64,000 nt of DNA from Sabellastarte sp. h YS-2021 (taxonomy: Eukaryota > Annelida > Polychaeta > Sabellida > Sabellidae): contig OZ024938.1 in assembly GCA_964017235.1 (NCBI GenBank), positions 11,337,454 to 11,401,453 of the forward strand. Direction: 5' to 3'. The notes beneath the pieces are model-generated. The model had not been told where the DNA came from. It saw only the letters and a program-made list of their open reading frames with translations, and did not search any database. Below, in pieces: positions 24,601 through 41,274 of the stretch (its first letter is position 1; every line of letters starts with the position of its first letter). The translations under genes and the position numbers were made by a program.

Positions 24601-27600
24601 ATACTTAGGCTGGCCAGTGGTGAGGTACTTATAAACCAAAACTAGGGTTTTGAAAATAATACGTTGTCTAATGGGTAGCCAATGAAGTGTCCTAAGGGTG
24701 GATGTAATATGAGTGTACTTTGAAGCACCAGTGACAAACCGTGCAAGAGCATTTTGAACATATTGGAGCCTTGTAGCATTTCGGGATGACAAACTGCGAA
24801 AAAGAGAATTGCAGTAATCCAAACGGCTACTGACCAGAGCATTTGCAATCACCACTGATGTATCCACAGAAAGAAACCTTCTGATGCGATGAAGGTCCCT
24901 GAGGCTAATAAAACAGGATTTGATAACAGAATTTACATGATTGGTGAAACAGAACTTTGCGTCAAACAGAACACCCAGATTGCGTACAACATCTGCGGGA
25001 GAGAGGCAATTACCAAGGATATTGACAGGAAATGAGTCACTGAGCCATTTGTGTCTGTCTTTGGCACCGAAGACTATGAATTCTGTTTTATCAGGATTTA
25101 GCTTGAGTTTGTTTTCAGACATCCAGACCTGAATATCATTCAAACACGATTTAAGACGGTCAAAAGACTTGAGACTATCATCAGGGGATAAGTGAATGAA
25201 CAGCTGAGTGTTGTCCGCATAGAAGTGGTAATGGACTCCGGTATATTTTCTGATGACTTGACCAAGAGGTGTTGTGTAGAGGGAAAACAGAAGAGGACCT
25301 AAGACAGAACCTTGGGGGACTCCAAACTTCAATTTGAACAAATTCGAAAGACTGGAACCAATCTTGACTGACTGAAAACGATCCTGGAGGTAGGATCTAA
25401 ACCATTTTAGTGCCGATCCAGCAAAACCAAATCTAGACGACAAACAGGATAGGAGTGTGTCATGATCAATAGTGTCGAAAGCCGCGGACAGGTCGAGTAG
25501 CACAAGTGCTGTAGGCATGCCCTTGGGCAGAGATAAGTGAATCTCATTTTTAATGCACAACAAGGCAGTTTCTGTTGAGTGCCCCAACTTATAGGCTGAC
25601 TGGAAAGTGTTACCAAGATCATGAGAATCCATGTGAGATCTAATTTGGGCAGCCACAATTCGCTCAACCAATTTTGACAAGAAGCTAAGACCGGACACCG
25701 GTCGATAGCTCTTCAAGTCCTCTTTTGAAAGAGTGGACTTTTTTAGGAGGGGTGTGACAATAGCCTGTTTGAAAGGATTAGGGAAAATGCCATTTTTGAG
25801 GGACAAGTTAACCAGTTTAGTCAATGAAGGGAGAAGAATGTCAATACATTGTTTCACAATGTGAGTGGGGCATGGATCAAGGGAGCAAGTTTTTGAAGGA
25901 GATTCCTTGATAAACTTAAGGACTTCAGTATCAGTGACAACTTGAAAGGAACTGAAAGTCGGCGGCTCCTTGTCTGAGTGAAGAACCTGAGATCGGGTGT
26001 ATTTAAAGGTGTCTCGAATCTTTCTAATTTTATCAATGAAAAATGAACCAAATCTGTTTGCTAAAGACTTTTCATCCTCAAAGGATGGGAGGACAGTAGA
26101 ATTTGACCGACTCAATGTTCTATTTAGTGCATGCCATAACCTCTTACTATCACCACAATTTTCACTAACTAGATCACGGTAGAAACACCCCTTGTTTCTA
26201 TTTAGAATGTGGTTACATCTGTTTATCTGCCGTCGAAGACGGGAACGATTTACAGAGGATTTGTCTCTTCTCCAGGCGCGTTCATACTGCCTTCTCATGC
26301 ACCTTGCAGTTCTATACTCGTCAGTTATCCAGCTTGGGGCTGGTTTGATGAGCTGTTTAGTCTTCACTGGTGCATGAATATCTAGAAGGCCAGACAAACC
26401 AGACATGTACTGTTCATGCAATAAATCTATATCATCAGATGGTGAGCAAACAAACGGAATAGTCAGGAGGTCACTTCTGAATTTATCAATATTCAATTTA
26501 TGATACTGACGGAAGGTAACAACTTTCTGAATTGGTGTATCCAAAGATGGAAAGTCAACCACACAAGAGATAATTTTGTGATCACTAATGAAGTCTGAAC
26601 CTTTCACATCAGAAATTGCAGAGAAATCAGATGGAGTAATGCCCCTAATATCAATTAGCAAAATATTCAAAAAGTGAAACACAACCTAACAACACAGAGT
26701 AACTCCCGGTAGTGGGCGATAATACCCGCAATATCAACTAGTTCTGATAAAAAATACCTTAAATACTACAAAGAGATGAGATGAAAGTGTACAATTTTTT
26801 TAAGATTTGGGGTTTATTTCAAATATTTGCAGGGTAAGTTTCGAGTTCTACATAAAATGACAATATGTGATATATATATATGTGTACATTGATATCGGCA
26901 ACCCTGTCCCAAAATAATAGATATCACTAATATCGATAAACGATTTAGCCAACAGAGCTTTCAGATCTGAGGGTGTACTTACGGAAAATACTTAATAAGG
27001 TTTTTCAGTTGACTGAGTTTTCTTGAAATCAGTAAATGGAATGTCGTAGCTGTGCTGACTGGTCTGTTATGTACAATTCTCTGTGTTCTTAGGGCTGGAT
27101 GAAGTGTGTTGGCTGTACTGACAGGTCTGTTATGTACAATTCTCTGTGTTTTTAGGGCTGGGTGGAGTGTGTTGGCTGTGCTGACTGGTCTGTTACGTAC
27201 AATTCTATGTGTTTTAGGGCTGGGTGGAGTGTGTTGGCTGTGCTGACAGGTCTGCCTATGATCTCACACAGCACACTAAAGCCACCGGTGTAAAACTTGC
27301 TGCAGAAAAACGACTGCCTCAGCCTGTATCTTTTTTTAATTTGTGTTTTTCAATACTTTTAGCTGCCATAATTTAATTAACAAAAAAGCAATCGTATTAT
27401 TTGGATTTATTTTACAATGAGTTGCACTACTTTTGTATCAGGTGTATTTGATGACGTGTAATCCGGATAGCATATTGCTGTAATGTATGTTGCTCATTTC
27501 CAATGAGCAAAACTAAAAAAAAATAATTAAGATAATTATGGTACAGACAATGGAATATGATCAGTCTTTATGCAGCTTTTTTATTTTACATTTTCCATGT

Positions 27601-30600: not shown

Positions 30601-33600
30601 CCTGGCCAGTGCCCGTGACGTCATAGCATCTTTTTTTGTTTGGCGCGTGGTGTTTGCACACGAAAATTTTCTGCTCTTAATATTTGTGGATTATAGCTAG
30701 GTTTTTCATTTTTTCTCAACTTATTTTAGTTTTATAACTTGTGGAGAGTGTATAGACTATAATGTCGTCACCTGGGCAAAAGAGAGGGGGCTGCGGTCAT
30801 CAGATGGCGTCCTTTTACTACAACTTTCTACGCCCTCTTACCGTCTCAAGAAGGAAAAAAGAGAGGCAAGGAAAATGGACGCTACACCCAGTAAAGACAG
30901 TTCTTTAGTTGAACCTTCATCCGTCTCTGTGATTGGACCTGTAGGGACTTCCAGCTCTTCTGCACCAGCTATTCCTGAAAAGAAGCCCAAGAAAGACAAG
31001 CCCTCCACTGCTTCTTCTTCTACAGGTAAAGCCAAGAAATCTACCAAATCGGTCGAAGATTCAAAGTACCTTGAACTTGACAAGAAATAGACCGACCGTT
31101 TTAATCGATTGGAGGCACTTCTCTTGGCCAAGTCTCTTCAGCCGGCTGATCAACCCGCCTTCTCCTCATCAGTCATAGTTCCCCCTGCTCACTCTCCTCC
31201 TGCTGCTATCTCCAAAGATTCCGAACCATTCTTTCAACCATTGTCTTCAGGGCGCACTGGCACAGACTCCTCTGTCCTAGTACATCAGTCAGCCAGCCAG
31301 CCCGGTTCGGAGAAGTCTTCATCTGAGCGCACTGGAAAAGACATCTCTGCTTCACAGCATCTGTCATCCAGCCAGCTTGTAACCGACCAACAACCTGTCC
31401 GACAGATTTCACCTGGGCGCACTGGCAAGGATTCCTCTGCCTCCAGGCATCAATCAGCCAGCCAGCCTTCAACCGACCGGCAGCGTCCGGTTACTCACAC
31501 TGGTACCGACCCTTCATCCATCAGACCTTCTTCAGATTCTAAGGCCCGGTCTGACCGGCCTAGATCTTTGGCCACCGACTCCGGCTCTCCAACTCTACAT
31601 CGACATCGTCGAAACAGCTCCTCTAGTGGCAGCTCAGCTTCAGATTCTGACTTCACCGACCGACCACCTGTGGACTTATACGCAGAAGAGGGAGAGTTAT
31701 CAGAGGATCAAGATTGCACGACCCATGAGCCCGACCAAGCTATCAGCGAGGAACAAACTTATAGAGAAACCATGAGTGGCATACGTTCCTATATGGGCTG
31801 GTCAAATATTCCTGAACTGGACAGTACTGCAACAGGATCCGATGATAACCCCTTTTCTGGGCCGAAGTCCTCTACCCCAGGGAAAGTGTCAGTGAATATG
31901 CCGACGGAGGATTGGCTGTGCAAGAAGATAAGCAAACTGAACGTTACTCTGGTTGAGGGTTACCCCTCCCGAAGTTCTGAAGCCGGTGGCTTGCTGATGG
32001 ACCAGTTCTTGAGACCTGCAAAGTCACAGTCCAAGTGGTACGGGCTGTCATCCGACCACAAAGCTGACCCTTCCGCAGTCTCGTCCTGGTATACGGACGC
32101 GTGCAAGTTGAACAGCACCTACAGCAGAATTGCTAGGCAGTCTGGTCTCACCACTTCTCATCCCACATCCAGGCGTATCTCTCAAGAGACTCTTAGGCGA
32201 TGGGAGAAATCAGCACGAGAGGCTACAATCATCTGTAACCAGGCTGCCAGTTTCAATCGTTGTCTTTTTAAAGTTCAACAAGACATACAGGAACAGTTCA
32301 AGACTGTACGCTCAGAGAATAAGGGCAAGAGTTCAACCAAGGTTTCCGCGGCTATGGATGAGATGCAACACCTCATGTACTTTAACTCCAGCATTTGCCA
32401 AGCTGCTGCAAAGACAATGGAGCACCTTACTGAATTTGTGTTTGTGTCCATGGGAAACCTGACGTTGGCTCGAAGGGACGCCTACCTCACCCACCTTAGA
32501 ACCGGGGTTAAACCAGACACTTTGGCCGGTTTAAGAACTGCTCCCATTCATATCAACACCCTCTTCCCGGACTCTCTCATCAAGAAAGCTGAAGAGGAAA
32601 TTGTACAGTATGAAAGCAAGGGTCAGTCGTCCTCTAGCAAGGGAAAGGGTCGGTACCATCCTTATGAGAGGCCGGAGAGGAAAGGTGACAAGAAATCATC
32701 GTCGTTTAAGAGTGACAAGCCCTCATGGAAAAACATTGGCAAAGGGCATCAGAGAAGGAATCGAGGGAAGTCTTCACACTACTCCTCGCGACCAGCCAAG
32801 GGCCAGCAGTCCTTTAAATGACAATCATTGTTTCAACAAGTTACAGGGAGGACTGCTGGCCGGGAGCCAGACTTTAACACCAGAACATTTTGTAAACTTA
32901 AATGTTGTAACTCGTGTTCCTACTGCACCCGGGCATTCACAAAGGAAAGGAGTAAGTCCCGGGTTGCCAGTCTGTCATTTACCAAAAGTTTGCAAATTAA
33001 AATATGTGAAAGGTGTTTCTTGTGTCACTCAATTGTGTTATGTAAATCCTGTAACAAATGTCAAACCTGCTGCCCAAAATCATCTTGTAGGGGCCAGGCT
33101 CCAACACTACTGGCAAATTTGGCTGGATCTGGGTGTCGGTCCAAAAGTGGTTCAAATCCTCAAAGAGGGTTATACCCTCCCCTTTCGGCACCGACCAAAA
33201 CTAGCAAGGTCTCCCACTGTCGTAAGCAGTTATGCAGATCCCCACAGGAACAGCTACCTGTTGGAGGCATTGCAGCAACTGCTCGACAAAAACGCTATAG
33301 AACTAGTTCAAAATCAAGCCTCACTGGGGTTTTTCAACAGGCTGTTTCTAGTACCAAAGCCCAACAACAAGTGGAGACCTATATTAGATCTGAGCAAGCT
33401 AAACCTCTTTCTGAAAACAGAAAAGTTCAAAATGGAAACTCCGGAAACCATCAGAACCTCCGTCCAACAGGGAGAATGGGTCACCTCCATCGACTTCAAG
33501 GACGCCTACTTCCATATCCCGGTACAGGAACAATCCAAGAAATACCTGAGATTTCATGTCCAGGGTCAGACATACCAATTCAAGGCATTACCTTTCGGTC

Positions 33601-36600
33601 TGTCCACAGCGCCCATGGAGTTCACTGTGGTAGTCAAGGAGGTGAAGCTGATGGCCACACAAAAGGGTATAAGAATCCACCAGTACCTAGACGACTGGTT
33701 GGTGAGAGCCCCTTCATATCGGTTATGTCTCCAACATACTCAGATTCTAGTAAAACTGTGCCAAGATTTAGGTTGGGTGGTGAATCTGGAAAAGTTGGAA
33801 CTGGAGCCCAAACAGGTTTTCAACTTCGTAGGTTACCAGTTCGACCTCATGGCCGGTCGGGTCAGACCCACACCGGACCGGTGGCAGAGTCTTCAGAGCA
33901 AGATATTGGAGCTGCTGTCCATACCGGCCTGCCCGGTCCGACAGTTCATGTCTCTGATAGGCCTACTCACTGCCACAGAAAAGCAGGTTCACCTCGGTCG
34001 GTTACATATGCGACCAATACAATGGCACCTCAAAAGAAACTGGAGGGTCCCGGAATCGCTAGAAAAGAGCATTCCCGTGCCCAGGTCCTTGCACCCACAT
34101 TTACGATGGTGGCTACAGGAAGACAATGTCCTCACAGGTCAGCCATTACACCCCATAAAACATGCTCTGCAAATTTTTACAGACGCATCAAAAGAAGGAT
34201 GGGGCGCTCACTTAAACGAGCATATTGCAAGAGGAACCTGGTCCCTACCAGAAAGCAAATTGCATATCAATTATCTCGAACTCAAAGCAGTCCTATTGGC
34301 TTTAAAAGAGTTCAGAGCCCTTTGCATAGACAAGATAGTTCTTGTCGCAACAGACAATACCACTGTGGTAGCCTACATAAACAAGGAGGGAGGGATGAAG
34401 TCGGGCCCGCTTTGCGCGCTTCTCTGGAGGATCTTGACCTGGTGTTCCAGCAATCAAGTCACCCTCAAAGCCCGACACATCCCAGGCCGTCTAAATGTGG
34501 TAGCAGACCAGCTATCCAGACTGGGCCAGACCATTCAAACAGAGTGGTCCCTCCTACCGGAGGTCTTTCATATGATATGCAAAAAGTGGCACCAGCCTCA
34601 AGTGGACTTATTTGCCACGAGATTCAACAGGAAGTTATCCCTGTTCGTGTCACCGGTTCCAGATCCCCTGGCCATGGCCATAGATGCCCTCAGTCTGCCT
34701 TGGGACGCGTATGCCTTCCCACCAACAGCCATTCTGGGCAAAGTGGTGGAGAAGTTGCAGAACACCCCATGCAAGAGAATGATTCTAATTGCCCCGGGGT
34801 GGCCGAACATGCCCTGGTTCTGGGACCTGGTAGCCATGTCCAGTCAAATCCCATTGAGCCTACCCTTCCTGCCCAACCTGCTAACACAACCATTCAATCA
34901 GATCCCTCACAGAAATCTGACGAATCTGAACCTCCATGCTTGGCTCCTAGAGCCGCAGCTATCAAAAAACAAGGGTTTTCTAAAGCAGTGGCGGAAAGGA
35001 TTGAGGCTCCTCAGAGAGGATCCACCCGATCAGTCTATGAAGCAAAGTGGACCATTTTTACAAAATGGTGCGACGCTCATCAGGTGGACTTCAGGGCACC
35101 CCCTGTAAAGTCAGTGGCCGACTTCCTATTATACCTGTTTCAGGACAGGAAGTTACAGCCCAGTACAATTGATGGATACCGGTCTGCTATTGCGGACAAG
35201 CTAGGAAACTCACCCTTAGACATGGGTAAAGACCAAAATCTCACTCGTCTCCTGGATAGTTTCCATAGAGACAGGCCCAAGGGAAGGCGGGGAATTCCTT
35301 CGTGGAACCTTTCACTGGTGTTACACCAGCTAACAAAACCCCCCTTCGAACCCATTAAAGAGGCATCTTTGAAGCATCTGACTTTCAAAACAGTTTTCCT
35401 CTTGGCCTTGGGTTCGGGAAAACGAAGGAGTGAGATTCATGCCTGGCAAAATAGAAACATCAGACACCAGTCGGATTGGTCCAAGGTGTCTCTATATCCA
35501 TCACCCAGCTTTCTCTCCAAGAACCAGCTGGCGAAAGAGGGTCCGGAGAGTGTGGCCCCAGTGGTTATACCAGCCCTGGCCCCTACTCTGGATAGATCCC
35601 TCAAGTCTGACAGGTCCCTCTGTCCGGTCAGAGCTTTACGCTACTATTTGGACAGGACCACAGACCTCAGGCAGAACAAAGAGTTAGTTTTTGTCTCCTT
35701 CAAGAAAGGTTTTGACAGAGATATCTCTCCTGCCACCATCTCCTCATGGATCAAGCAAACAGTGATCCTGTGTTATGAGCTCTCTGATCAGGAGTCCCAC
35801 CAACTACATCAGGTTAAAGCCCATGATGTTAGGGCCTTTGCTGCTTCCAAGGCTTTCCAGTCGGGAGTATCCTTGGAACAAATTTTGTCAGCCTGCCACT
35901 GGAAGTCACATAACACCTTCACACAATTCTACCTGAAGGATGTGGCTTGGGCCGACACAGAGCTCTTCCACCTAGGGCCGGTAGTGGCTGCTCAGCAGGT
36001 CCACAAATAGCCCGAACACGGGGAGATGTGTACATATGTATATAGTGTACAGATAATTAAGAGTTTTTGAACACAAAAAAAAAAAAAAAAAAAATGTGCT
36101 TTGCTTCCTTCGGGAGGTTTATTTCTTGGGTCTGGACTCATCCCTCTTCTTCCCTCCTTCAGAAGGGCCTGAAGAAAAACAAGGGGGGGGGAGAGGTGGG
36201 TCGGTTTGGGCCGTTGTACCGGCTTCTGTAGACCGGCCCTAGCCTTAGTAGTCCCCTGTTCTCAGGGTAGACCTGGGCAGTCGAGTTGTTAGTTCTTAAT
36301 CTGAGTCCATTGAGACCCCAATGACTTACCCGCCTACCAAGCGGTAGTTATTCAGCTATTGTCCATTGGATAGGATGTATTAACGCAATAAAATTGCAAA
36401 TTTAATAAGTAAATTAAATTTTTATAAGTTAATACCCTATCCAATGGACACACAAGACCCTCCCAACCGACCCCGCTTACATTCCTTGGGGATCCGGATC
36501 AGGCTTTAAGTGACCCGAAAAAAGATGCTATGACGTCACGGGCACTGGCCAGGAAGCAACACAGAGGCGACACCTAGCGAGTGCACACCAGGGCCGGGCG

Positions 36601-39600
36601 GCCAGTATGCATGCATACAGAATGACTTTTTCTGTCGTTTGGCGGGCCGGTCTGCGCCGACCGGATAAGCTATTGTCCATTGGATAGGGTATTAACTTAT
36701 AAAAATTTAATTTACTTATTAAATTTGCAATTTTGTAACTGTTTGAAATTTTTTAAAGTGTATAGTTTTTGCAAAGTCTGAGTTTCAAGTATTTTAACCA
36801 AACTTTATTTTTGGAATAGAGATCAAGCAAACTACCACTGTTCTACAAAAATAAAAAATGTCACTTTCAAAATCACTGAAATTCTTACTACATTGATGTT
36901 TACTGGACAAGATTATTAACTTGAGACTTTAGATCATCCGGATATCGTTTTAGTGGAAGAAATCATCCCATCTGTGATAGAGCCGTCGTTTGGTATTGGG
37001 CGCATCATGTACACAATATTTGAGCACAATTTCAAAATGCGGGAAGGAGATGAACAGAGAACGGTAAGTTGGCTTATTTCACCGTATTCTCAATAAAACA
37101 TAGAAGTTATTTGATGGGCAAACTAAAATAGTATCTCTTGTGATGTTTTGGTAATTTCTGAATGTTTTTCAGAATCCGAATGTTAGATATTTGAACGAAA
37201 CTATGTTTTTGGGGCAGTCAACATGCGAACTATTGAACTTGAAAAAACTTCTACTACTGTTGTTTGTATGTAAACACATTTAAACAATTTGAATCTATTT
37301 TGTGTGTTTAATTTTCTTATTTGATCTATTGTTATTTCGTGTACATGAGAACAAAAATTTTGCATTTATAAATTGCAAAGCCACGGTGCCAGAACGTTAA
37401 CACATCTCGCCTCCCACCTCTGAGATTGGCGTTCGAATCTCAAGTGGGAAAGCTGGTAGTTGCTTGCCGTTGGTTGGCAGTTTACAGTACAGAACCTTGA
37501 CCAACTGTATGTACTGGTTTCCTCTGCTCATAAAACTACCTATTGTGATGTGATCTATACAATGTGTTGAAAGCGACGTTAAAACCCAAATAACTAAATA
37601 AATGTAAATTGCAAATCAGGGGTTGGATGGAGGGAGTTGCACACACGTGTACCTACTGGTGGTGCTGTCGTTTGCGTCTACAAATACAGTTTTCTGGGTG
37701 TTCAAAAATAAATTATATCTGCTGTTTTGTTTGGTTTAGTATTTACACAACTACTGAAAATTGTAGATGTGTTTACATGAGACATAAGTCCATACGCACA
37801 AGAGAAGGCAAAATATTTTAAAGGTCATCATATTGAACCATTGTGAAGGTATTTTATTCAATATTTAATAATATCACCAACATTTATAATTTGTCAAGCA
37901 ATATAATGCATGCATTATGGAAAATAAAAAGGTTTTTCAATTACCGGTTCTCACAACTTGATAAGGCATGTTGCCATTTTAGTCCAGATCGAAACAACAT
38001 GTGGTATCCAGGCATTACATTAACAACACTGGTACATACACTTAGAATCTGCACAGATTAAGCATGATGAAAGTCTGATAAGATTAATTAGATTCACTAT
38101 GTATTTTATCTTTTTCATTTCAGTACATCTCTCTTCCGGCTCTGATCGCACCCTACAAGTGTTCAGTGCTTCCACTTAGTAACAAGCCAGAGTTCATGCC
38201 TTTTGTGAAAAGCCTCTGTGAGTATTTCCTTTAAAACAATTCTACAAGAAAATTGTCACTGGGGCAGGTCACCATCACAATGAGGACTTTGGTTGCCTCG
38301 AAATGATTCACAAACTTTGATCAGGATACAGACTTTTTACTTAGTTTAGTTTTTTGGTGTAATTTACTAGTGATTAGTTCATTGGTGAGTTGCTACCGCC
38401 ATATTTCCAACGTCGGATGAGAAGTTCACCCGTACAACTTTGGAAACATAGCTCTAAAATAAATTATATTTCTGCAAGGCCCACAATAAGTGACTATAAT
38501 GGAACAACTAGTGACTTTAATGTATTTTTGTCTTTTGCATAAAACTGCTTGCTCAGCACAGAAATAAATTACAAGTTTGGCTGACAGCATTGAGTGAAGT
38601 ATGGAATATAATGCCATGTTTGCTTTTCAGTTGGCTGCAACTAAAACATGGTTACCCGAATTCAGATCGGTTCTTTCCAGAAGGTTACCCGCCGGTGTTG
38701 TTTTTCCAACAAAGTCACGGCCTTAGTTGTTATCCTTAAATTCGAATGAACAGTTCAGACACTGCAGACACTGGTGCACTGCTGAGGGTCAACTCTGGAA
38801 ATCACCAAAGTCATTGAAACTCTACACAAAATTTACTAAACTGTGTGTAAAATGTTTTAGTGTTGACAATAATGTTGCTCAGTTTAAATTAGATTTTGGG
38901 CACTATCTGTCAATAACAAAGGACAAGGCAATCCCTTCACCAATTTTTACCAAATTTTCAGAATATGTTTATCAGGCAATATCCGACAAGAACGCTAGCC
39001 AATAGCAACACTTTTGCTTATTTTTTTCACTTGTTCTTCTGTGGGTCTTCTTCAGTCAATCCCCGGCGTGTTTCAGTGTATCTTTGTCCCAATTGGTACT
39101 AGAGCTTCTTACATTTCAGGCAACATCTGGTAGAGTGGGTGCTCTAGAGTCCAACCCATGCATGGACTTTACAAAAAAAATTTCCTTTACATTTAAAATG
39201 GTGTGCAACTTGCCAAATGTCTTTGGTACTCTCCGTTATACTTGCAGGCTGGGGTTCTCACCAGCTGAGGCGGGCTATATTTACAACTAGAAACAGATTC
39301 TTTTATTTTACAAACTATCTGTTAGTTCAACACTATCCTTCCAAGCATGTTTGGATAACAGAGATTTTTTGCAGTCACTATTCTCTTAGTACTTCCTGCA
39401 TCTTCTCTGTGTTTTTAGCACGTTATTTGAACCATGACTATTAAAAACCATCTTTAAAAGATCATTATGAAGAGCTTTGTCCTTTTAGCATCTTCGTTGA
39501 CAAACCTGGATGTCTCCCACCGAGTGGACAGCAGCACAGGGTCAATCGGCCGGCGATATGCACGCACTGACCAAATCGCTATTCCGTACGGCATCACGAT

Positions 39601-41274
39601 TGACTTTGACACACTAGAACAGCCTCACACTGCCACACTGAGAGAACGCGAGACCATGAAACAGATACGGGCACCGGTAAGTAACGAAACAGATATGTTG
39701 GCCAGTGAGACCATAAAACAGATACGGGCACCGGTAAGTAATGAAACAGATATGTTGGCCAGTGAGACCATAAAACAGATACGGGCACCGGTAAGTAACG
39801 AAACAGATATGTGGGCCAGTGAGACCATAAAACAGATACGGGCACCGGTAAGTAACGAAACAGATATGTGGGCCAGTGAGACCATAAAACAGATACGGGC
39901 ACCGGTAAGTAATGAAACAGATATGTTGGCCAGTGAGACCATAAAACAGATACGGGCACCGGTAAGTAACGAAACAGATATGTGGGCCAGTGAGACCATA
40001 AAACAGATACGGGCACCGGTAAGTAACGAAACAGATATGTGGGCCAGTGAGACCATAAAACAGATACGGGCACCGGTAAGTAATGAAACAGATATGTTGG
40101 CCAGTGAGACCATAAAACAGATACGGGCACCGGTAAGTAACGAAACAGATATGTGGGCCAGTGAGACCATAAAACAGATACGGGCACCGGTAAGTAACGA
40201 AACAGATATGTTGGCCAGTGAGACCATAAAACAGATACGGGCACCGGTAAGTAATGAAACAGATATGTTGGCCAGTGAGACCATAAAACAGATACGGGCA
40301 CCGGTAAGTAATGAAACAGATATGTGGGCCAGTGAGACCATAAAACAGATACGGGCACCGGTAAGTAACGAAACAGATATGTTGGCCAGTGAGACCATAA
40401 AACAGACACGGGCACCGGTAAGTAACAAAACAGATATGTTGGCCAGTGAGACCATAGAACAGATAAGAATGCTGGTAAGAGATATGATAATCCTGAAACA
40501 TATACGTGTGCCAGTGACATCCTGATATAGATACGTGTGTCGGTAAGTGATAACTTGAAACAGATACATGTGTTACTAAGTGATAGCTTGGAACAAATAA
40601 GAATGCTGGCAAGTGATACCATGAAACAGATAAGAATGGTGGTAAGAGATATGATAATCCTGAAATGTATATGTGTGCCAGTAAGTGATATCCTGAAACA
40701 GATAACTGTGCCTGTGAGATCCTGAAATAGATACGTGTGTCAGTAAGTGATAACATGAGACAGATACATGTGCTATTAAGTGAAACAGAATCATGTGCCA
40801 GTAAGTGAGATCCTGAAACAGACATGTGTGCCATTAAGTAATTACTTTTTTTAGTTTTCTTAACAAAATCTGTATTGATGGTAAGCATGCAAAATCATAA
40901 CTTTAAAGTTAAAACAATGACTGTTGTGGTTGGTTGTGAACAGTTTGGAATACTTGACCCATTTGTATACATTTTTTTTTTTTCAGTTTTTTTTTCAAAT
41001 GTGGGCTCTCCCTGTGGCTCGTACTTCTAGCAATTACTTTTTTCTGTTATTTATTACATATTTGGTCTCCAGATTTTTAGAAGCACTACTGTAGTGCACT
41101 ACTCTTGTTTGCTTCGCGGCTCACACACGCAGAACATAATAAATTTTTGCCTTGTTTTTTTAGCTGGAGAAATTGCCTCAGATTGTTGCAGACTTGGGGA
41201 ATGAGAAGTGTACCTGGCAGGATGTGCTGAATAATTACCCAGAATTCACCCAACAGGAAGCCACCAGTAAATAG
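527..41274 (+). CDS. GARS1: glycyl-tRNA synthetase (13 exons, N-terminus upstream of window)
   Basis: Attaches glycine to tRNA-Gly in cytosol and, in most animals, mitochondria. Exons: 527-668, 1453-1618, 4370-4515, 10999-11148, 15407-15569, 16060-16224, 27218-27325, 28580-28725, 29526-29611, 36954-37063, 38124-38217, 39489-39676, 41164-41274. Every junction is GT-AG and every phase matches the next, giving about 590 continuous residues that align without gaps to most of human GARS1 as I remember it. Class II motif 2 spans exons 4-5 ([15 protein letters not shown]). Motif 3 is in exon 10 ([16 protein letters not shown]). The anticodon-binding domain is in exons 11-13. Missing upstream: the WHEP domain, the start codon and the promoter. 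Introns are bloated by mobile elements, the largest (exon 6-7) being about 11 kb. Splice-junction duplications flank exons 7, 8 and 12. Confidence 0.97.
1453..1618 (+). CDS. GARS1: GARS1 exon 2
   Basis: Encodes [19 protein letters not shown] through KIQKLLPK. It matches the GlyRS segment '[22 protein letters not shown]'. The acceptor is 'TATATTTCAG'. The donor reads GTATAG, a weak hexamer, because a TA-flanked transposon inserted five bases into the intron (see 1624-1847). Confidence 0.95.
1624..1847. mobile_element. TA-flanked MITE (Tc1/mariner-like) inserted in the exon 2 splice donor
   Basis: Seen: terminal inverted repeats GAGTAAGGAATCTAAAATTC (left) and the complement of GAATTTTAGATTTCTTACTC (right), about 24 bases long. 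A second inner copy of the 'AAATTCGCCA' part lies at each end. TA dinucleotides flank it at 1622-1623 and 1848-1849. The 224 bp interior has no coding potential. A TA target duplication is typical of Tc1/mariner; the assignment rests on that and the repeats alone. Confidence 0.75.
2657..3153. mobile_element. hAT-type MITE, copy 1
   Basis: Inverted ends TAGGGATGTGTCGGTA and the complement of ACCGACCCATCCCTA (one mismatch). A perfect 8 bp target duplication ATAGGGTT lies at 2649-2656 and 3154-3161. Eight-base duplications and TAGGG termini are hallmarks of hAT elements. It is 497 bp, non-coding, and sits in the exon 2-3 intron. A sister copy follows at 3217. Confidence 0.85.
3217..3710. mobile_element. 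hAT-type MITE, copy 2
   Basis: Same family and orientation as the element at 2657-3153, with collinear interior blocks such as 'GAAATACCGTGA', 'AATATGGAAGGGAGAGTTAAAA' split across lines, and 'TTTTGCATTGGCGACCTCC'. Ends are diverged (TAGAGATGG.. / ..CCATCCCTG). The possible 8 bp duplication is imperfect (ATGTGTAT versus ATATATAT, 6 of 8), so this copy looks older. Confidence 0.75.
3917..4285. mobile_element. hAT-type MITE of a second family
   Basis: Perfect 15-base inverted ends TAGGGACGTCATCGT and a perfect 8 bp target duplication CTAGTGAC at 3909-3916 and 4286-4293. The interior is A/T-rich with inverted 'ACCGTGATATC' segments near both ends and no coding potential. It lies just 84 bases upstream of GARS1 exon 3. 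Confidence 0.88.
4370..4515 (+). CDS. GARS1: GARS1 exon 3
   Basis: Encodes [18 protein letters not shown] through [13 protein letters not shown](split). It matches the GlyRS segment before '[12 protein letters not shown]' (human ..[20 protein letters not shown]..). The acceptor is TATTTTCAG and the donor GTATGT. Confidence 0.95.
4930..5600 (+). mobile_element. degenerate L1-like LINE, 3' fragment
   Basis: Broken reading frames give '[13 protein letters not shown]', '[14 protein letters not shown]' and '[15 protein letters not shown]'. These resemble the C-terminal region of L1-type LINE proteins (WFQ-KIL, a CxxC..H zinc motif, then F-W). Several stops interrupt it. The 3' limit is a guess, near the A-rich stretch at 5578-5605. 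It resembles the LINE split at 43.5/50.5 kb in plan but not closely in sequence. Confidence 0.5.
5650..10493. mobile_element. hairpin-ended interspersed element containing the 169 bp satellite
   Basis: The left end carries a near-perfect palindrome TCCACCCCCC-T-GGGGGGTGGA (5660-5680), followed by ~420 bases of unique sequence with 'AAATTTGGTATGCAGG'-type text. The array of 169 bp units follows. At 10484-10493 the sequence GGGTGGACAT is the inverted match of ATGTCCACCC at the left end (about 5656). Proposed as one element whose core expanded as tandem units, like the core-repeat elements known in bivalves. No protein is encoded. The boundaries are inference from the short inverted match. Confidence 0.5.
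6095..10350. repeat. 169 bp satellite array, about 25 units, in GARS1 intron 3
   Basis: Unit length is 169 bp by direct spacing (for example 7405, 7574, 7743, 7912, 8081, 8250). Two variants alternate. Type A has 'GTGCGAGATAG', TTTCGTCGAAA and 'AAGGAATG'. Type B has 'GTGCCAGATAG', TTTCGTCAAAA and 'GAGCATTGT.CTCTTGG'. The order is roughly A A A B A A B A A A hybrid B A A B A B A A B A A B A plus decayed last units. Two blocks 1,691 bp (ten units) apart, 6940-7590 and 8631-9281, are nearly identical. Each unit holds AAAATGGC-G-GCCATTTT and TTTTGCCA-AAAA-TGGCAAAA dyads. The last two units and the first are the most diverged. Open frames of 60-106 codons here are by-products. Confidence 0.95.
10999..11148 (+). 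CDS. GARS1: GARS1 exon 4 (motif 2 region)
   Basis: Frame reads [G][21 protein letters not shown] through [21 protein letters not shown] and FRNE are diagnostic for GlyRS; the FRNE arginine of motif 2 contacts ATP. The acceptor is TTGCTACAG and the donor GTAGAT. Confidence 0.97.
11225..11410 (-). mobile_element. truncated hAT-type element, same family as 27665-28449
   Basis: In reverse orientation it repeats the left part of the element at 27665: TAGTGTTCTC terminus (11401-11410 complement), 'GGTAGGTAGTGATTTCAACG', 'GCGGGTACCCGGGTAC', then 'ACCATTTGCTT.ATTTCTT'. Only one terminus is present, so it is a truncated or deleted copy. Confidence 0.7.
11870..12130. repeat. degenerate ~60 bp tandem repeat
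   Basis: Four or five diverged copies of a unit of the form 'TCTGTCATTTGAA..ACTGTAACTC.CC.GTTAGACTGCCC.CTCTATC'. No gene is visible. The flanks 11411-11870 look like unique intron. Confidence 0.5.
12192..14230. repeat. hairpin-started interspersed element with ~350 bp internal repeats
   Basis: It begins with an inverted repeat ATATCCCC-AGACGAAAGT-CGGGGATAT, then a CCG microsatellite (12240-12257) and 'GATAACTCAAAAAC' text typical of a widespread invertebrate repeat class. The core is tandem: the landmark 'CACCCGAGTGAC' recurs at about 12572 (variant), 12922, 13272, 13623 and 13943 (variant), so the period is about 350 bp with about five copies. The right end is not clearly defined. Only short open frames occur. 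Confidence 0.7.
14928..15205. repeat. two-copy tandem repeat, about 130 bp unit
   Basis: A block starting 'AATAATATTTTATTTGT.AACAAATATAG' and ending 'ATTTAAATACTTTGAA' occurs twice in a row with few differences, in the intron before GARS1 exon 5. Between 14231 and 14927 I see only A/T-rich intron and a G/A-rich patch (14698-14760). Confidence 0.8.
15407..15569 (+). CDS. GARS1: GARS1 exon 5
   Basis: Encodes [R][21 protein letters not shown] through WTIGEAVQQ. '[11 protein letters not shown]' completes motif 2 of GlyRS. The acceptor is TACATTTCAG and the donor GTGAGT. Confidence 0.97.
16060..16224 (+). CDS. GARS1: GARS1 exon 6
   Basis: Encodes [19 protein letters not shown] through [21 protein letters not shown]. 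The 'RFRQHM.NEMAHYA.DCWDAE' block is diagnostic for eukaryotic GlyRS. The donor is GTGAGT. The following intron is about 11 kb because of a DIRS-like element and a LINE. Confidence 0.97.
16497..16590 (+). mobile_element. tRNA-derived SINE head or tRNA relic
   Basis: An A-box-like TAGCTTAGCTGG and a B-box-like GGATCGACTCC are spaced as in a tRNA with an enlarged anticodon/variable region. The acceptor ends pair poorly, so it is not a working tRNA gene. A SINE body is not recognisable before the DIRS-like element starts about 80 bases later. Confidence 0.4.
16750..18813 (+). pseudogene. Gag-like region of DIRS-like element A
   Basis: The N-terminus has a cysteine cluster of the form C-x2-C-R-x3-G-x-GDDPC-x6-C-x2-C followed by SFSDEQ. 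A Pro/Ser/Lys-rich linker and a conserved central block follow ('[16 protein letters not shown]', '[10 protein letters not shown]', '[10 protein letters not shown]'). The C-terminus is Arg/Gly-rich, as in nucleic-acid-binding Gag tails. Element C shares the cysteine cluster, and element B shares the central block. This is a fossil copy. Confidence 0.8.
18856..21000 (+). pseudogene. RT / RNase H / methyltransferase-like region of DIRS-like element A
   Basis: The RT blocks [44 protein letters not shown] and HQYLDDWL are visible. Further on come RNase H blocks ([25 protein letters not shown]) and the DIRS methyltransferase-like block ([35 protein letters not shown]). The family uses overlapping frames for this region and the recombinase. 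The copy is broken. Confidence 0.85.
21007..22095 (+). pseudogene. tyrosine recombinase region of DIRS-like element A
   Basis: Family-typical order of an N-terminal SAM-like core-binding part ('[17 protein letters not shown]', '[15 protein letters not shown]') and the catalytic part with 'RSEIHAW', '[15 protein letters not shown]' and '[16 protein letters not shown]'. In DIRS elements this enzyme, rather than an integrase, joins the circular DNA to the genome without target duplication. It is part of a broken element. Confidence 0.85.
22431..22810 (+). repeat. internal complementary region and right inverted terminal repeat of element A
   Basis: The internal complementary region (about 22431-22530) joins 'GTCCACTAGGTAAGATGTAT' to 'AATAAAATGG' to 'ATACCTTACCTAGTGGAC', the usual DIRS palindrome-like junction of terminal sequences. 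The right terminal repeat (about 22600-22810) ends 'ATTAAATTTTCCA'. It contains GCGCATGCGC at 22614-22623. A poly-G run (22291-22318) precedes the junction. Confidence 0.8.
22811..24190. other. intronic sequence with an unclassified interspersed repeat, no gene
   Basis: A/T-rich intron. From about 23640 to 23945 there is text typical of dispersed invertebrate repeats ('ACACCAAATTTGGAAGATTC', 'GTTTTTGAGTTATAAGGGC'), then an ACAG microsatellite at 23877-23900. No terminal repeats or coding region are recognised. Confidence 0.5.
24195..26690 (-). mobile_element. L2/CR1-like LINE, 5'-truncated
   Basis: One open frame (777 codons, 24349-26682) covers the end of the apurinic endonuclease ([12 protein letters not shown] with the catalytic SDH) and a full reverse transcriptase ([31 protein letters not shown]). 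The C-terminal region is present too ([33 protein letters not shown]), as in the L2/CR1 group. The 3' end, at 24195-24210 on the + strand, is a short CAATCAATCAATCA-type tail typical of this group. The 5' part is missing. It lies antisense in the GARS1 exon 6-7 intron. Confidence 0.9.
24349..26682 (-). CDS. LINE endonuclease (end) / reverse transcriptase, catalytic motif YADN
   Basis: The frame is open for 777 codons, but the catalytic box, normally FYADD, reads FYADN. The second aspartate codon is AAC at 25210-25212 (minus), one transition from GAC. That aspartate binds the catalytic metal, so the enzyme is predicted dead although the frame is otherwise unbroken. The start methionine is only the first in-frame ATG after the truncation, not a genuine start. 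Confidence 0.85.
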   Translation of the reverse strand: MFHFLNILLIDIRGITPSDFSAISDVKGSDFISDHKIISCVVDFPSLDTPIQKVVTFRQYHKLNIDKFRSDLLTIPFVCSPSDDIDLLHEQYMSGLSGLLDIHAPVKTKQLIKPAPSWITDEYRTARCMRRQYERAWRRDKSSVNRSRLRRQINRCNHILNRNKGCFYRDLVSENCGDSKRLWHALNRTLSRSNSTVLPSFEDEKSLANRFGSFFIDKIRKIRDTFKYTRSQVLHSDKEPPTFSSFQVVTDTEVLKFIKESPSKTCSLDPCPTHIVKQCIDILLPSLTKLVNLSLKNGIFPNPFKQAIVTPLLKKSTLSKEDLKSYRPVSGLSFLSKLVERIVAAQIRSHMDSHDLGNTFQSAYKLGHSTETALLCIKNEIHLSLPKGMPTALVLLDLSAAFDTIDHDTLLSCLSSRFGFAGSALKWFRSYLQDRFQSVKIGSSLSNLFKLKFGVPQGSVLGPLLFSLYTTPLGQVIRKYTGVHYHFYADNTQLFIHLSPDDSLKSFDRLKSCLNDIQVWMSENKLKLNPDKTEFIVFGAKDRHKWLSDSFPVNILGNCLSPADVVRNLGVLFDAKFCFTNHVNSVIKSCFISLRDLHRIRRFLSVDTSVVIANALVSSRLDYCNSLFRSLSSRNATRLQYVQNALARFVTGASKYTHITSTLRTLHWLPIRQRIIFKTLVLVYKYLTTGQPKYFAPYLPLYKSAVNTRRSNPKNLFLQVPSYCASIHKSKVHFNNSFSYDAPKLWNDLPYDIRSAPNLSSFKSRLKTYLFQKSFPP
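26691..27042. other. intron, nothing recognised
   Basis: A/T-rich intron sequence between the LINE and the duplicated acceptors of GARS1 exon 7. A short TA repeat lies at 26870-26881. Confidence 0.5.
27043..27217 (+). repeat. GARS1: tandem copies of the GARS1 exon 7 acceptor and exon start
   Basis: Two complete extra copies (27093-27155, 63 bp; 27156-27217, 62 bp) and one partial copy (27043-27092). Each consists of the first ~45 bases of exon 7 (GGCTGG.TG.AGTGTGTTGG..) followed by a 'TGTACAATTCT.TGTGTTTTAG' acceptor tract. Acceptor AGs lie at 27091-27092, 27154-27155 and 27216-27217. Only the last gives the conserved protein. Starting at 27093 reaches an in-frame TAG at the copy end, and starting at 27156 shifts the frame because the copy is 62 bp. 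Confidence 0.9.
27218..27325 (+). CDS. GARS1: GARS1 exon 7
   Basis: Encodes [24 protein letters not shown] through EKRLPQP. It matches human 'GWIE.VGCADRSCYDLS.HA.AT'. The start at 27218 is fixed by the phase of exon 6 and the conserved SYGW/TYGW join. The donor is GTATCT. Confidence 0.96.
27665..28449. mobile_element. hAT-type non-autonomous element
   Basis: Inverted ends TAGTGTTCT (left) and TAGTGCTCT (complement of right). A perfect 8 bp target duplication GTTTTGTT lies at 27657-27664 and 28450-28457. G/C-rich 'CGGGTACCCGGGTAC'-type subterminal repeats sit near both ends (27719-27735 and 28375-28433). It is 785 bp with no transposase frame. A truncated relative lies at 11225-11410. Confidence 0.88.
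28580..28725 (+). CDS. GARS1: GARS1 exon 8
   Basis: Encodes [21 protein letters not shown] through [10 protein letters not shown](split). It corresponds to human '[20 protein letters not shown]..' with the same length. The acceptor is GACCCAG and the donor GTAAGG. The phase matches exons 7 and 9. Confidence 0.94.
28690..29015 (+). repeat. GARS1: degenerate tandem copies of the GARS1 exon 8 3' end and donor
   Basis: Downstream of the exon the pattern 'GAGGCTTTAGAGAAGAATGG-GTAAGG..AAGATTACTGTGGA' recurs in decayed form. One copy has AATGG-GTAAGT at 28841-28850; another (about 28879-28921) has 'GAAAGCTTCACTAAAGAATG' then 'GAGAGGTTATTGTGGA'; two further weaker copies follow to about 29015. The 28846 donor is a full GTAAGT consensus, better than the real GTAAGG. 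Using it would read GGG-TAA, a stop. Confidence 0.6.
29261..29397. mobile_element. short foldback MITE-like repeat
   Basis: Inverted ends 'ATTGGTATTCACAAAG' (29261) and the complement of 'CTCTGTGAATACAAAT' (29384-29399). Between them lie repeated 'TTTGGATTAA / TTAATCCAAA' segments that also pair. This resembles the short 'GTATTCACAAAG' foldback elements common in animals. No target duplication is clear. Confidence 0.5.
29526..29611 (+). CDS. GARS1: GARS1 exon 9
   Basis: Encodes [G][28 protein letters not shown](split). It matches human 'GEF.IE..GK.F.L..DMI.VKRFQKTL'. The acceptor is TTCCCCCAG and the donor GTATGT. Confidence 0.94.
29635..29890 (+). mobile_element. tRNA-derived SINE, plus-orientation arm
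   Basis: An A box TGGCCTAGTGGG (29643-29654) and a B box GGTTCGATCC (29689-29698) mark a tRNA-like head. The body 'CATAGTGGCTCAGATGACCACT..ATTGGGTCCCATACCCAGTGGCAGGC..ATTGATAAATGGTCAT' follows. A second copy lies inverted at about 29915-30180. It starts 24 bases after exon 9. Confidence 0.8.
29915..30180 (-). mobile_element. tRNA-derived SINE, minus-orientation arm
   Basis: The reverse complement gives 'CTGTGGCCTAGTGGTTAACAC', an A box, 'CCTAGGTTCAGTCCTAGG' as the B-box region, then the same body as the + copy down to the 'GGGGAAGGTCAGT' block. The two arms are nose to nose and could fold into a hairpin of more than 200 bp in the GARS1 pre-mRNA. Confidence 0.8.
30447..30640 (+). repeat. left inverted terminal repeat of element B
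   Basis: Inverted match to about 36520-36734, including 'CCTATCCAATGGACAATAGC', 'GGTCGGCGCAGACCGG', 'GTATGCATGCATAC' and a perfect CRE palindrome TGACGTCA at 30616-30623 (right copy 36531-36538). In this family the terminal repeat is thought to carry the promoter. Confidence 0.9.
31109..32821 (+). CDS. Gag-like protein region of DIRS-like element B
   Basis: A Ser/Thr/Arg-rich N-terminal part contains several 'GRTG.DSS' repeats. The conserved DIRS Gag-like block follows ('[16 protein letters not shown]', '[10 protein letters not shown]', '[10 protein letters not shown]', '[15 protein letters not shown]'), then a Lys/Arg/Gly-rich tail for nucleic-acid binding. It is the same plan as in elements A and C. 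The upstream part of Gag is rearranged, so the true start is not visible. Confidence 0.75.
   Translation: MEALLLAKSLQPADQPAFSSSVIVPPAHSPPAAISKDSEPFFQPLSSGRTGTDSSVLVHQSASQPGSEKSSSERTGKDISASQHLSSSQLVTDQQPVRQISPGRTGKDSSASRHQSASQPSTDRQRPVTHTGTDPSSIRPSSDSKARSDRPRSLATDSGSPTLHRHRRNSSSSGSSASDSDFTDRPPVDLYAEEGELSEDQDCTTHEPDQAISEEQTYRETMSGIRSYMGWSNIPELDSTATGSDDNPFSGPKSSTPGKVSVNMPTEDWLCKKISKLNVTLVEGYPSRSSEAGGLLMDQFLRPAKSQSKWYGLSSDHKADPSAVSSWYTDACKLNSTYSRIARQSGLTTSHPTSRRISQETLRRWEKSAREATIICNQAASFNRCLFKVQQDIQEQFKTVRSENKGKSSTKVSAAMDEMQHLMYFNSSICQAAAKTMEHLTEFVFVSMGNLTLARRDAYLTHLRTGVKPDTLAGLRTAPIHINTLFPDSLIKKAEEEIVQYESKGQSSSSKGKGRYHPYERPERKGDKKSSSFKSDKPSWKNIGKGHQRRNRGKSSHYSSRPAKGQQSFK
32850..35108 (+). CDS. 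RT / RNase H / methyltransferase-like protein region of element B
   Basis: RT blocks [43 protein letters not shown] and HQYLDDWL; RNase H blocks [13 protein letters not shown] and [12 protein letters not shown]; methyltransferase-like block [20 protein letters not shown] with [15 protein letters not shown]. The frame is open throughout and overlaps Gag upstream and the recombinase frame downstream, as usual in DIRS elements. Confidence 0.88.
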   Translation, partial: GLLAGSQTLTPEHFVNLNVVTRVPTAPGHSQRKGVSPGLPVCHLPKVCKLKYVKGVSCVTQLCYVNPVTNVKPAAQNHLVGARLQHYWQIWLDLGVGPKVVQILKEGYTLPFRHRPKLARSPTVVSSYADPHRNSYLLEALQQLLDKNAIELVQNQASLGFFNRLFLVPKPNNKWRPILDLSKLNLFLKTEKFKMETPETIRTSVQQGEWVTSIDFKDAYFHIPVQEQSKKYLRFHVQGQTYQFKALPFGLSTAPMEFTVVVKEVKLMATQKGIRIHQYLDDWLVRAPSYRLCLQHTQILVKLCQDLGWVVNLEKLELEPKQVFNFVGYQFDLMAGRVRPTPDRWQSLQSKILELLSIPACPVRQFMSLIGLLTATEKQVHLGRLHMRPIQWHLKRNWRVPESLEKSIPVPRSLHPHLRWWLQEDNVLTGQPLHPIKHALQIFTDASKEGWGAHLNEHIARGTWSLPESKLHINYLELKAVLLALKEFRALCIDKIVLVATDNTTVVAYINKEGGMKSGPLCALLWRILTWCSSNQVTLKARHIPGRLNVVADQLSRLGQTIQTEWSLLPEVFHMICKKWHQPQVDLFATRFNRKLSLFVSPVPDPLAMAIDALSLPWDAYAFPPTAILGKVVEKLQNTPCKRMILIAPGWPNMPWFWDLVAMSSQIPLSLPFLPNLLTQPFNQIPHRNLTNLNLHAWLLEPQLSKNKGFLKQWRKGLRLLREDPPDQSMKQSGPFLQNGATLIRWTSGHPL
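34930..36010 (+). CDS. tyrosine recombinase region of element B
   Basis: About 360 residues: core-binding part ('[17 protein letters not shown]', '[15 protein letters not shown]') and catalytic part with [19 protein letters not shown] and [16 protein letters not shown]. These supply the R, H-x2-R, H/W and Y positions of tyrosine recombinases. The enclosing open frame begins at 32828, but the part before about 34930 is out of register with known domains. Confidence 0.88.
36354..36734 (+). repeat. internal complementary region and right inverted terminal repeat of element B
   Basis: 36354-36450 is the internal complementary region: complement of the left terminus up to 'GCAATAAAA', then complement of the right terminus from 'TTGCAAATTTAATAAG'. 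The right terminal repeat is at about 36520-36734. A poly-A run (36075-36094) lies between the last frame and this region. Confidence 0.9.
36954..37063 (+). CDS. GARS1: GARS1 exon 10 (motif 3)
   Basis: Encodes [V][51 protein letters not shown] is class II motif 3 of GlyRS, holding the ATP-binding arginine. The acceptor is TCGTTTTAG and the donor GTAAGT. Confidence 0.97.
37064..37379. other. intron, nothing recognised
   Basis: A/T-rich intron between exon 10 and the SINE at 37380. The next stretch, 37615-38123, is likewise plain intron. Confidence 0.5.
37380..37604 (+). mobile_element. tRNA-derived SINE with molluscan Meta-like tail
   Basis: Head with a decayed A box (GGTGCCAGAACGTTAACAC) and B box GCGTTCGAATCTC. 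The shared body is 'GGGAAAGCTGGTAGTTGCTT', 'CAGTTTACAGTACAGAACCTTGACC' in part, and 'GGTTTCCTCTGC.CATAAAA'. The tail is 'GCGACGTTAAAACCCAAATAA'-like. An 11 bp target duplication TAAATTGCAAA flanks it (37369-37379 and 37605-37615). The same family occurs at 60008. The tail recalls the conserved 3' domain of Meta-type SINEs in molluscs, by memory. Confidence 0.85.
38124..38217 (+). CDS. GARS1: GARS1 exon 11 (start of anticodon-binding domain)
   Basis: Encodes [31 protein letters not shown]. It matches human '[31 protein letters not shown]', the start of the HGTP anticodon-binding fold. The acceptor is CATTTCAG and the donor GTGAGT. Confidence 0.97.
38218..39488. other. GARS1 intron 11, nothing recognised
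   Basis: About 1.27 kb with no recognisable repeat, RNA or coding signal; the small open frames here show no family resemblance. Confidence 0.5.
39489..39676 (+). CDS. GARS1: GARS1 exon 12
   Basis: Encodes [S][17 protein letters not shown], then [31 protein letters not shown] and TMKQIRAP. It matches human '[41 protein letters not shown]'. Ending at 39676 and joining exon 13 gives [11 protein letters not shown], the same length as human [11 protein letters not shown], so the first donor (GTAAGTAA) is the ancestral one. The open frame runs on through the repeat array. Confidence 0.95.
39650..40447 (+). repeat. GARS1: 57 bp minisatellite built from the exon 12 end plus splice donor (14 copies)
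   Basis: Units begin at 39650 + 57k. Each has the last 27 exon bases ('GAGACCAT.AAACAGATACG' then GGCACCG), a donor GTAAGTAA, and a 24-base intron piece. Fourteen copies are nearly identical, varying mainly at C/T (GTAACG/GTAATG) and T/G (GTTGGCC/GTGGGCC). The period is 19 codons with no stop in the gene's frame, so using donor k adds k x 19 residues of the repeat [17 protein letters not shown](L/W)A. Long antisense frames here are by-products. Confidence 0.97.
40448..40850 (+). repeat. GARS1: older, diverged 33 bp copies of the exon 12 junction
   Basis: Beyond the 57 bp units about ten decayed units follow, mostly exactly 33 bases. Examples are 'GATACCATGAAACAGATAAG..GTAAGA' and 'GATAACATGAGACAGATACA..ATTAAGT'. 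The unit equals the 33-base junction GAGACCATG..CCG-GTAAGT itself. Many keep a donor-like (G/A)GTAAGT. Confidence 0.85.
41164..41274 (+). CDS. GARS1: GARS1 last exon
   Basis: Encodes [21 protein letters not shown] through [14 protein letters not shown] and TAG at 41272-41274. It matches human '[32 protein letters not shown]'. The acceptor is TTTTTTTAG. Confidence 0.96.
   Translation: MEKLPQIVADLGNEKCTWQDVLNNYPEFTQQEATSK

What the first reader, a model, noticed from the sequence alone, without database searches (positions are those of the whole stretch)
39650..40447. Array of 14 identical splice donors that would extend GlyRS in 19-residue steps
Seen: the last 27 bases of GARS1 exon 12, its donor GTAAGTAA and 24 intron bases are repeated 14 times at exactly 57 bp, open in the gene's frame, with the exon ending in phase 0. 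Use of donor k would add k x 19 residues next to the anticodon-binding domain without breaking the frame. Known: tandem donors compete by position and U1 binding. Inference: either a natural generator of isoforms, or a case where the first donor always wins.
Basis: partly seen in the sequence, partly recalled or inferred. Interest (0 to 1): 0.9.

Follow-up and report, generated by a model that had tools for sequence, protein, structure and literature searches.

The report
Repeated splice donor in annelid GlyRS
In an annelid worm's glycyl-tRNA synthetase gene, the end of one exon and its splice signal stand 14 times in tandem, all in frame, much like a repeat known in a human gene; it probably does little, but it is a clean natural test of how cells choose between identical splice sites.

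Summary
Window 39650-40447 holds 14 copies of a 57-bp unit: the last 27 bases of a GlyRS exon plus 30 intron bases. The 14 donors are identical over 11 bases, and the gene frame stays open to a stop at 40523. A search of the 1.79-Gb source genome finds the module (up to 3 mismatches) 14 times, all here.

The tools add four things. (1) The unit is very likely a dimer of two junction-derived modules; 12 older, decayed ones follow downstream, so amplification happened more than once. (2) The same gene carries a second junction array, of three acceptors, whose upstream sites break the frame. (3) The junction lies inside the anticodon-binding domain; 120 of 120 relatives compared have no insert there. 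(4) An open in-frame unit has a chance of about 0.15, and only 1 of 5 unit variants is synonymous.

Best reading: a junction-spanning minisatellite, like the human CBS 31-bp exon 13/intron 13 VNTR, with the first donor making the working enzyme and later donors rare or silent. No RNA evidence was reachable. A paper seen says that the intron-proximal of two comparable donors is favoured, so use of later donors stays open.
The parts
39489..39676 (+). GlyRS exon 12 of the window (188 bp, ends in phase 0); its last 27 bases are the exon part of unit 1
39650..40447 (+). young array: 14 units of 57 bp, each with donor CCG|GTAAGTAA; open in the gene frame
40448..40845 (+). older field of 12 decayed junction modules, commonest spacing 33 bp, several keeping GTAAG
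40523..40525 (+). first in-frame stop after the array
41164..41274 (+). GlyRS exon 13 of the window, last coding exon, starts in phase 0
27049..27254 (+). second junction array of the same gene: about 3.3 copies of a 62-63 bp unit carrying a 3' splice site; exon starts 27093, 27156 and 27218, of which only 27218 keeps the frame
27218..27325 (+). GlyRS exon 7 of the window, read from the last acceptor of that array

Best explanation
This is a minisatellite that spans an exon-intron junction. Tandem duplication of the end of GlyRS exon 12 with its donor happened at least twice: an older round left about 12 decayed modules, then a 57-bp dimer of two modules spread to 14 copies, partly in blocks of three units. 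(Shown: the copies, their kinship, the block pattern. Inferred: unequal exchange or slippage as the cause.) The working enzyme is most likely made from the first donor (39676), because it gives the conserved protein and a 188-nt exon; later donors are silent or used at a low level, and when used add 19 residues each in frame, so they do little harm. (Inferred; no RNA seen.) Copy number probably differs between individuals. (Inferred.)
For: 14 near-identical units with indel-free period and the module found nowhere else in the genome search. Both halves of the 57-bp unit match the consensus of the older modules without gaps, 0 of 5000 shuffles each. Pattern TT,CG,CG repeated at units 2-4 and 5-7 points to block duplication. 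Exon origin: the exon end encodes the conserved MKQIR segment. First-donor product aligns to human GlyRS without a gap at the junction, and 120 of 120 listed relatives, many from short contigs of transcript size, have no extra residue there. No coding constraint among copies. A second, frame-breaking junction array in the same gene.
Against: The intron-proximal donor is said to be favoured when two are comparable (PMC6002489 passages), which would favour late donors. All 14 donors pair equally well with U1 in the computed duplex, -10.9 kcal/mol, and the first four units fold no better than shuffles, so nothing in the sequence marks the first donor. The module period of both rounds (33 and 57) is a multiple of 3 and open, which could reflect past coding use. 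The closest relative in the protein set is only 76% identical, so relatives say little about this species. The direct comparison of the two halves of the unit is weaker: 26 of 5000 shuffles reach it.
Confidence: 0.62

Rival explanations
1. Graded isoforms: several donors are used, giving a nested set of GlyRS proteins longer by 19, 38 ... up to 247 residues between the last strand and a helix of the anticodon-binding domain.
For: Identical donors, exact 57-bp register, open frame, insertion point in the short stretch between strand and helix, no RNA structure that hides donors in the first four units.
Against: No insert in 120 of 120 relatives; no protein matched the repeat region among 8000 scored candidates, though this species' own GlyRS is not in the set (best 76%); no coding constraint between copies.
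Confidence: 0.15
2. The last strong donor (40417), or the last few, is the main site because intron-proximal donors win; the normal GlyRS of this species then carries about 247 extra residues.
For: Intron-proximal preference between comparable donors (PMC6002489 passages); shorter intron (746 against 1487 nt).
Against: The exon would be 929 nt and an essential enzyme would carry a large repeat inside a conserved domain; no relative does.
Confidence: 0.1
3. Use of later donors lowers the amount of working GlyRS, so copy number tunes expression, as reported for the human CBS repeat.
For: A review seen in passages says that more CBS repeat units go with lower CBS activity (PMC5188458). Older donors beyond 40523 would give a truncated protein.
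Against: No expression or population data here; the 14 young donors all keep the frame.
Confidence: 0.09
4. Assembly artefact: the array is misassembled or its length is wrong.
For: Tandem arrays are often compressed or expanded in assemblies (general knowledge); raw reads could not be seen.
Against: Units carry distinct variants in a structured order; the contig is 74.8 Mb long; only one place matches; decayed modules next to it support a true local history.
Confidence: 0.04

Closest known systems
Human CBS 31-bp VNTR at the exon 13-intron 13 boundary, c.1444_1467+7(16_21)
   Same: A tandem repeat whose unit is exon end plus intron start (24 + 7 bases as I read the notation), 16 to 21 copies, so the donor is repeated; unit length constant with single-base variants between units (PMC2630376 passages; PMC5188458 and PMC1395315 passages).
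   Different: 31 is not a multiple of 3, so later donors would shift the frame; here 57 = 19 codons, open. Human gene and polymorphism known; here one assembly. Whether later CBS donors are used I could not read (Lievers 2001 not held).
Human CBS 844_845ins68
   Same: Duplicated intron 7/exon 8 junction in an enzyme gene, where one of the duplicated sites is strongly preferred and the normal mRNA is restored (PMC2630376 passages). It resembles the acceptor array at 27049-27254.
   Different: One duplication, not an array of 14; junction of the other kind than the exon 12 donor array.
Competing upstream and downstream donors (for example ESR1 exon 1)
   Same: Comparable donors 33 nt apart in one exon; U1 can bind both (PMC6002489 passages).
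   Different: Two donors, not 14 identical ones; not a tandem duplication.
TERT intron 6 38-bp VNTR
   Same: Tandem repeat whose number affects splicing (PMC3948165, start of abstract in search listing).

Membership tests
Junction-spanning minisatellite (CBS 31-bp type) | repeat unit contains exon end, donor and intron start | tested here: met
Junction-spanning minisatellite (CBS 31-bp type) | more than a few head-to-tail copies of constant length | tested here: met
   14 units of 57 bp, 0% indels
Junction-spanning minisatellite (CBS 31-bp type) | copy number varies between individuals | not testable with these tools
   one assembly; one place in the genome search
Junction-spanning minisatellite (CBS 31-bp type) | effect of copy number on splicing or enzyme activity | not testable with these tools
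   no RNA or activity data
Alternative 5' splice site (isoform generator) | RNA reads or proteins using more than one donor | tested here: inconclusive
   no protein match to the repeat region among 8000 scored candidates, but this species' GlyRS is not in the set
Alternative 5' splice site (isoform generator) | each donor keeps the reading frame | tested here: met
   14 of 14 strong donors
Alternative 5' splice site (isoform generator) | conserved insert or site in relatives | tested here: not met
   0 of 120 listed relatives have an insert; their genomic DNA was not seen
GlyRS (GARS1) | class II core and anticodon-binding domain, end-to-end match | tested here: met
   PF00587 and PF03129; human GlyRS structures matched over query residues 1-588 of 590
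Duplicated acceptor (CBS 844ins68 type), for 27049-27254 | duplicated intron end and exon start, one site giving the normal frame | tested here: met
   three acceptors, spacing 63 and 62; reads from the first two run into stops

The most novel reading that the evidence does not exclude
A housekeeping enzyme gene has turned a repeated splice junction into a length dial: the cell draws from 14 identical donors, so one gene makes a ladder of GlyRS proteins with 0 to 13 copies of a 19-residue insert inside the anticodon-binding domain, and the ladder's range differs between individuals with array length.
Probability: 0.12. Interest if true: 0.85.

Novelty: new variant of a known kind. Interest (0 to 1): 0.5.

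Why it matters
How the splicing machinery picks one of several equal donors is described as not known for two comparable sites (PMC6002489 passages). Here nature has set up 14 equal sites at equal spacing, with near-identical flanks and no change of frame, in a gene that must be expressed, so use of each position can be read directly from ordinary RNA-seq without confounding by site strength or by decay of frame-shifted mRNA. The acceptor array of the same gene gives the mirror-image case, with a frame penalty. The locus also shows a route by which intron sequence could become coding in 19-residue steps.

Tried and rejected
Rejected: 'next to the anticodon-binding domain' (PF03129 covers residues 472-563 of the spliced protein and the junction is after 554). 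Rejected: that 14 open copies are 14 pieces of evidence; the copies descend from few events, and one open 3n unit has a chance of about 0.15. Rejected: that each unit is one junction module (but the direct half-against-half test is weak, 26 of 5000 shuffles). Rejected: mollusc origin, my first guess from the named hits; the tree and COX1 point to an annelid. Rejected: RNA structure hiding the donors (first four units fold no better than shuffles, 182 of 200 at least as stable). The Pfam hit of the extended protein to PF08102 (scorpion antimicrobial peptide) has no stretch passing on its own and is taken as chance.

Led nowhere: search of the repeat region against proteins; paper searches for repeated donors gave no further case in their listings, which are capped at 12-20 rows, and the library lacks most subscription papers. 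Three papers asked for by id were not held. A search of the source genome for processed GlyRS copies, which could show the spliced form, did not complete (14 tries).

Full report
WHAT IS THERE. Window 39650-40447 holds 14 units of 57 bp without indels. Each has 27 bases like the end of a GlyRS exon, then a donor GTAAGTAA and 22 more intron bases. The donors are identical from -3 to +8 in 14 of 14. The gene frame is open across 816 bases of the array, while the other two frames have 30 and 33 stops; the first stop is at 40523. Read through, each unit gives [19 protein letters not shown] or the L/W variant.

THE GENE. I placed 13 exons of GlyRS in the window, each with AG before it and, for 12 of them, GT after it. 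The joined protein (590 residues, 5' part missing) matches human GlyRS structures over residues 1-588 and carries PF00587 and PF03129. The exon 12/13 junction follows residue 554, inside PF03129 (472-563). In an AlphaFold2 model of the nearest relative, P0001, the equivalent point is the end of a strand (705-709), three residues before a helix (713-721); the model is poor overall (mean pLDDT 63.5) but blocks of 10 residues from 681 to 730 score 88-94. An insert would therefore sit in a strand-helix turn of the domain.

SOURCE. The window lies in a genome of 1,785,957,881 bases in 647 contigs. In a tree of 39 GlyRS proteins that I chose from the 120 listed hits plus the window, the window pairs with an unnamed contig protein (98/95) inside an 8-row group with the leech Helobdella (100/99). 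The 21 best COX1 hits carry annelid names as far as the listing shows them, the best being 78% identical. So it is an annelid whose own proteins seem not to be in that set.

UNIQUENESS. The 26-base module with up to 3 mismatches occurs 14 times in the genome search, 14 forward and 0 reverse, all in this array; the reversed control gives 0. The tool warns that such counts can be lower bounds. The 1211-bp stretch has one match, so no second haplotype or copy was seen.

HISTORY OF THE ARRAY. Downstream, 40448-40845 holds 12 decayed modules that I picked by motif, with starts 25 to 39 bp apart and 33 commonest. Their consensus matches the first half of the unit over 27 ungapped bases, the second half over 24, and the exon end over 26, each with 0 of 5000 shuffles as good. 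One of the 12 was out of register by one base in that consensus. A direct comparison of the two halves is weaker (26 of 5000 shuffles). The unit is thus most likely two modules, the second with its donor decayed to GTGAGA. The variants at positions 36 and 50 run CT,TT,CG,CG,TT,CG,CG,TT,CG,CT,TT,TG,CT,CT, which suggests block duplication of three units. Tandem Repeats Finder also reports a 167-bp period in the older field. The junction was therefore amplified in at least two rounds.

A SECOND ARRAY. At 27049-27254 the same gene has about 3.3 copies of a unit with a 3' splice site. Exons could start at 27093, 27156 or 27218. The spacing is 63 and 62, and reads from the first two run into stops after 20 and 45 codons; only 27218 gives the [12 protein letters not shown] segment in frame that matches human GlyRS. 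So junction duplications survive in this gene even where extra sites would be harmful if used.

IS THE FRAME A SIGN OF FUNCTION? With the donor fixed, 9157 of 20000 shuffles of the remaining 24 intron bases are open; with the 1/3 chance of a length divisible by 3 this is about 0.15 (with all 30 bases shuffled 7413 of 20000, about 0.12). The older 33-bp consensus is also 3n and open, a mild point for past coding tolerance. Among the 14 units, 1 variant type is synonymous and 4 are not. Of the 120 listed relatives, 120 have no length difference over the 15 residues around the junction.

WHICH DONOR? In a computed duplex with the U1 5' end (recalled), the array donors score -10.9 kcal/mol, second among the 12 donors of the gene in the window (best -13.0), and 9 of 11 matches, the highest. 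No other donor-like site in 39489-41163 reaches 8 of 11 except one at 40880. The first four units do not fold better than shuffles. Sequence therefore does not single out the first donor. For it speak the conserved protein and the short exon (188 against 929 nt at k = 13; intron 1487 against 746 nt); exon-size limits are general knowledge. Against it speaks the statement that the intron-proximal of two comparable donors is favoured (PMC6002489, passages). I give 0.62 to the first donor being the main one with the rest rare or silent.

CLOSEST KNOWN. The human CBS 31-bp VNTR spans the exon 13-intron 13 boundary with 16 to 21 units (PMC2630376, passages; PMC1395315, passages), and more units were reported to go with lower CBS activity (PMC5188458, passages). 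The original paper was not held. The present array is of that kind but in frame, longer, in a different gene and phylum, and with a companion acceptor array. I found no other report of repeated donors in searches, which cover only open-licence papers and were seen as listings.

VERDICT. Real, well built, and useful as a natural experiment; most likely a selectively near-neutral minisatellite rather than an evolved isoform machine.

Noticed in passing
27049-27254: Tandem array of three near-identical 3' splice sites in the same GlyRS gene, spacing 63 and 62 bp; only the last acceptor keeps the frame.
   Followed up: yes
40448-40845: Older, decayed junction modules; some keep GTAAG, and the 33-bp consensus reads open as LKQIRVPVSDI.
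   Followed up: partly
16732-22092 and 30701-36007: Two stretches of long open frames in introns that look like a retroelement with reverse transcriptase and tyrosine recombinase (recalled motifs, no family search run).
   Followed up: no
6084-10352: A 169-bp tandem repeat of about 25 copies inside a GlyRS intron.
   Followed up: no
L003 1420-3036: Mitochondrial COX1 of the source genome has a serine-rich C-terminal extension and at most 78% identity to listed proteins.
   Followed up: no
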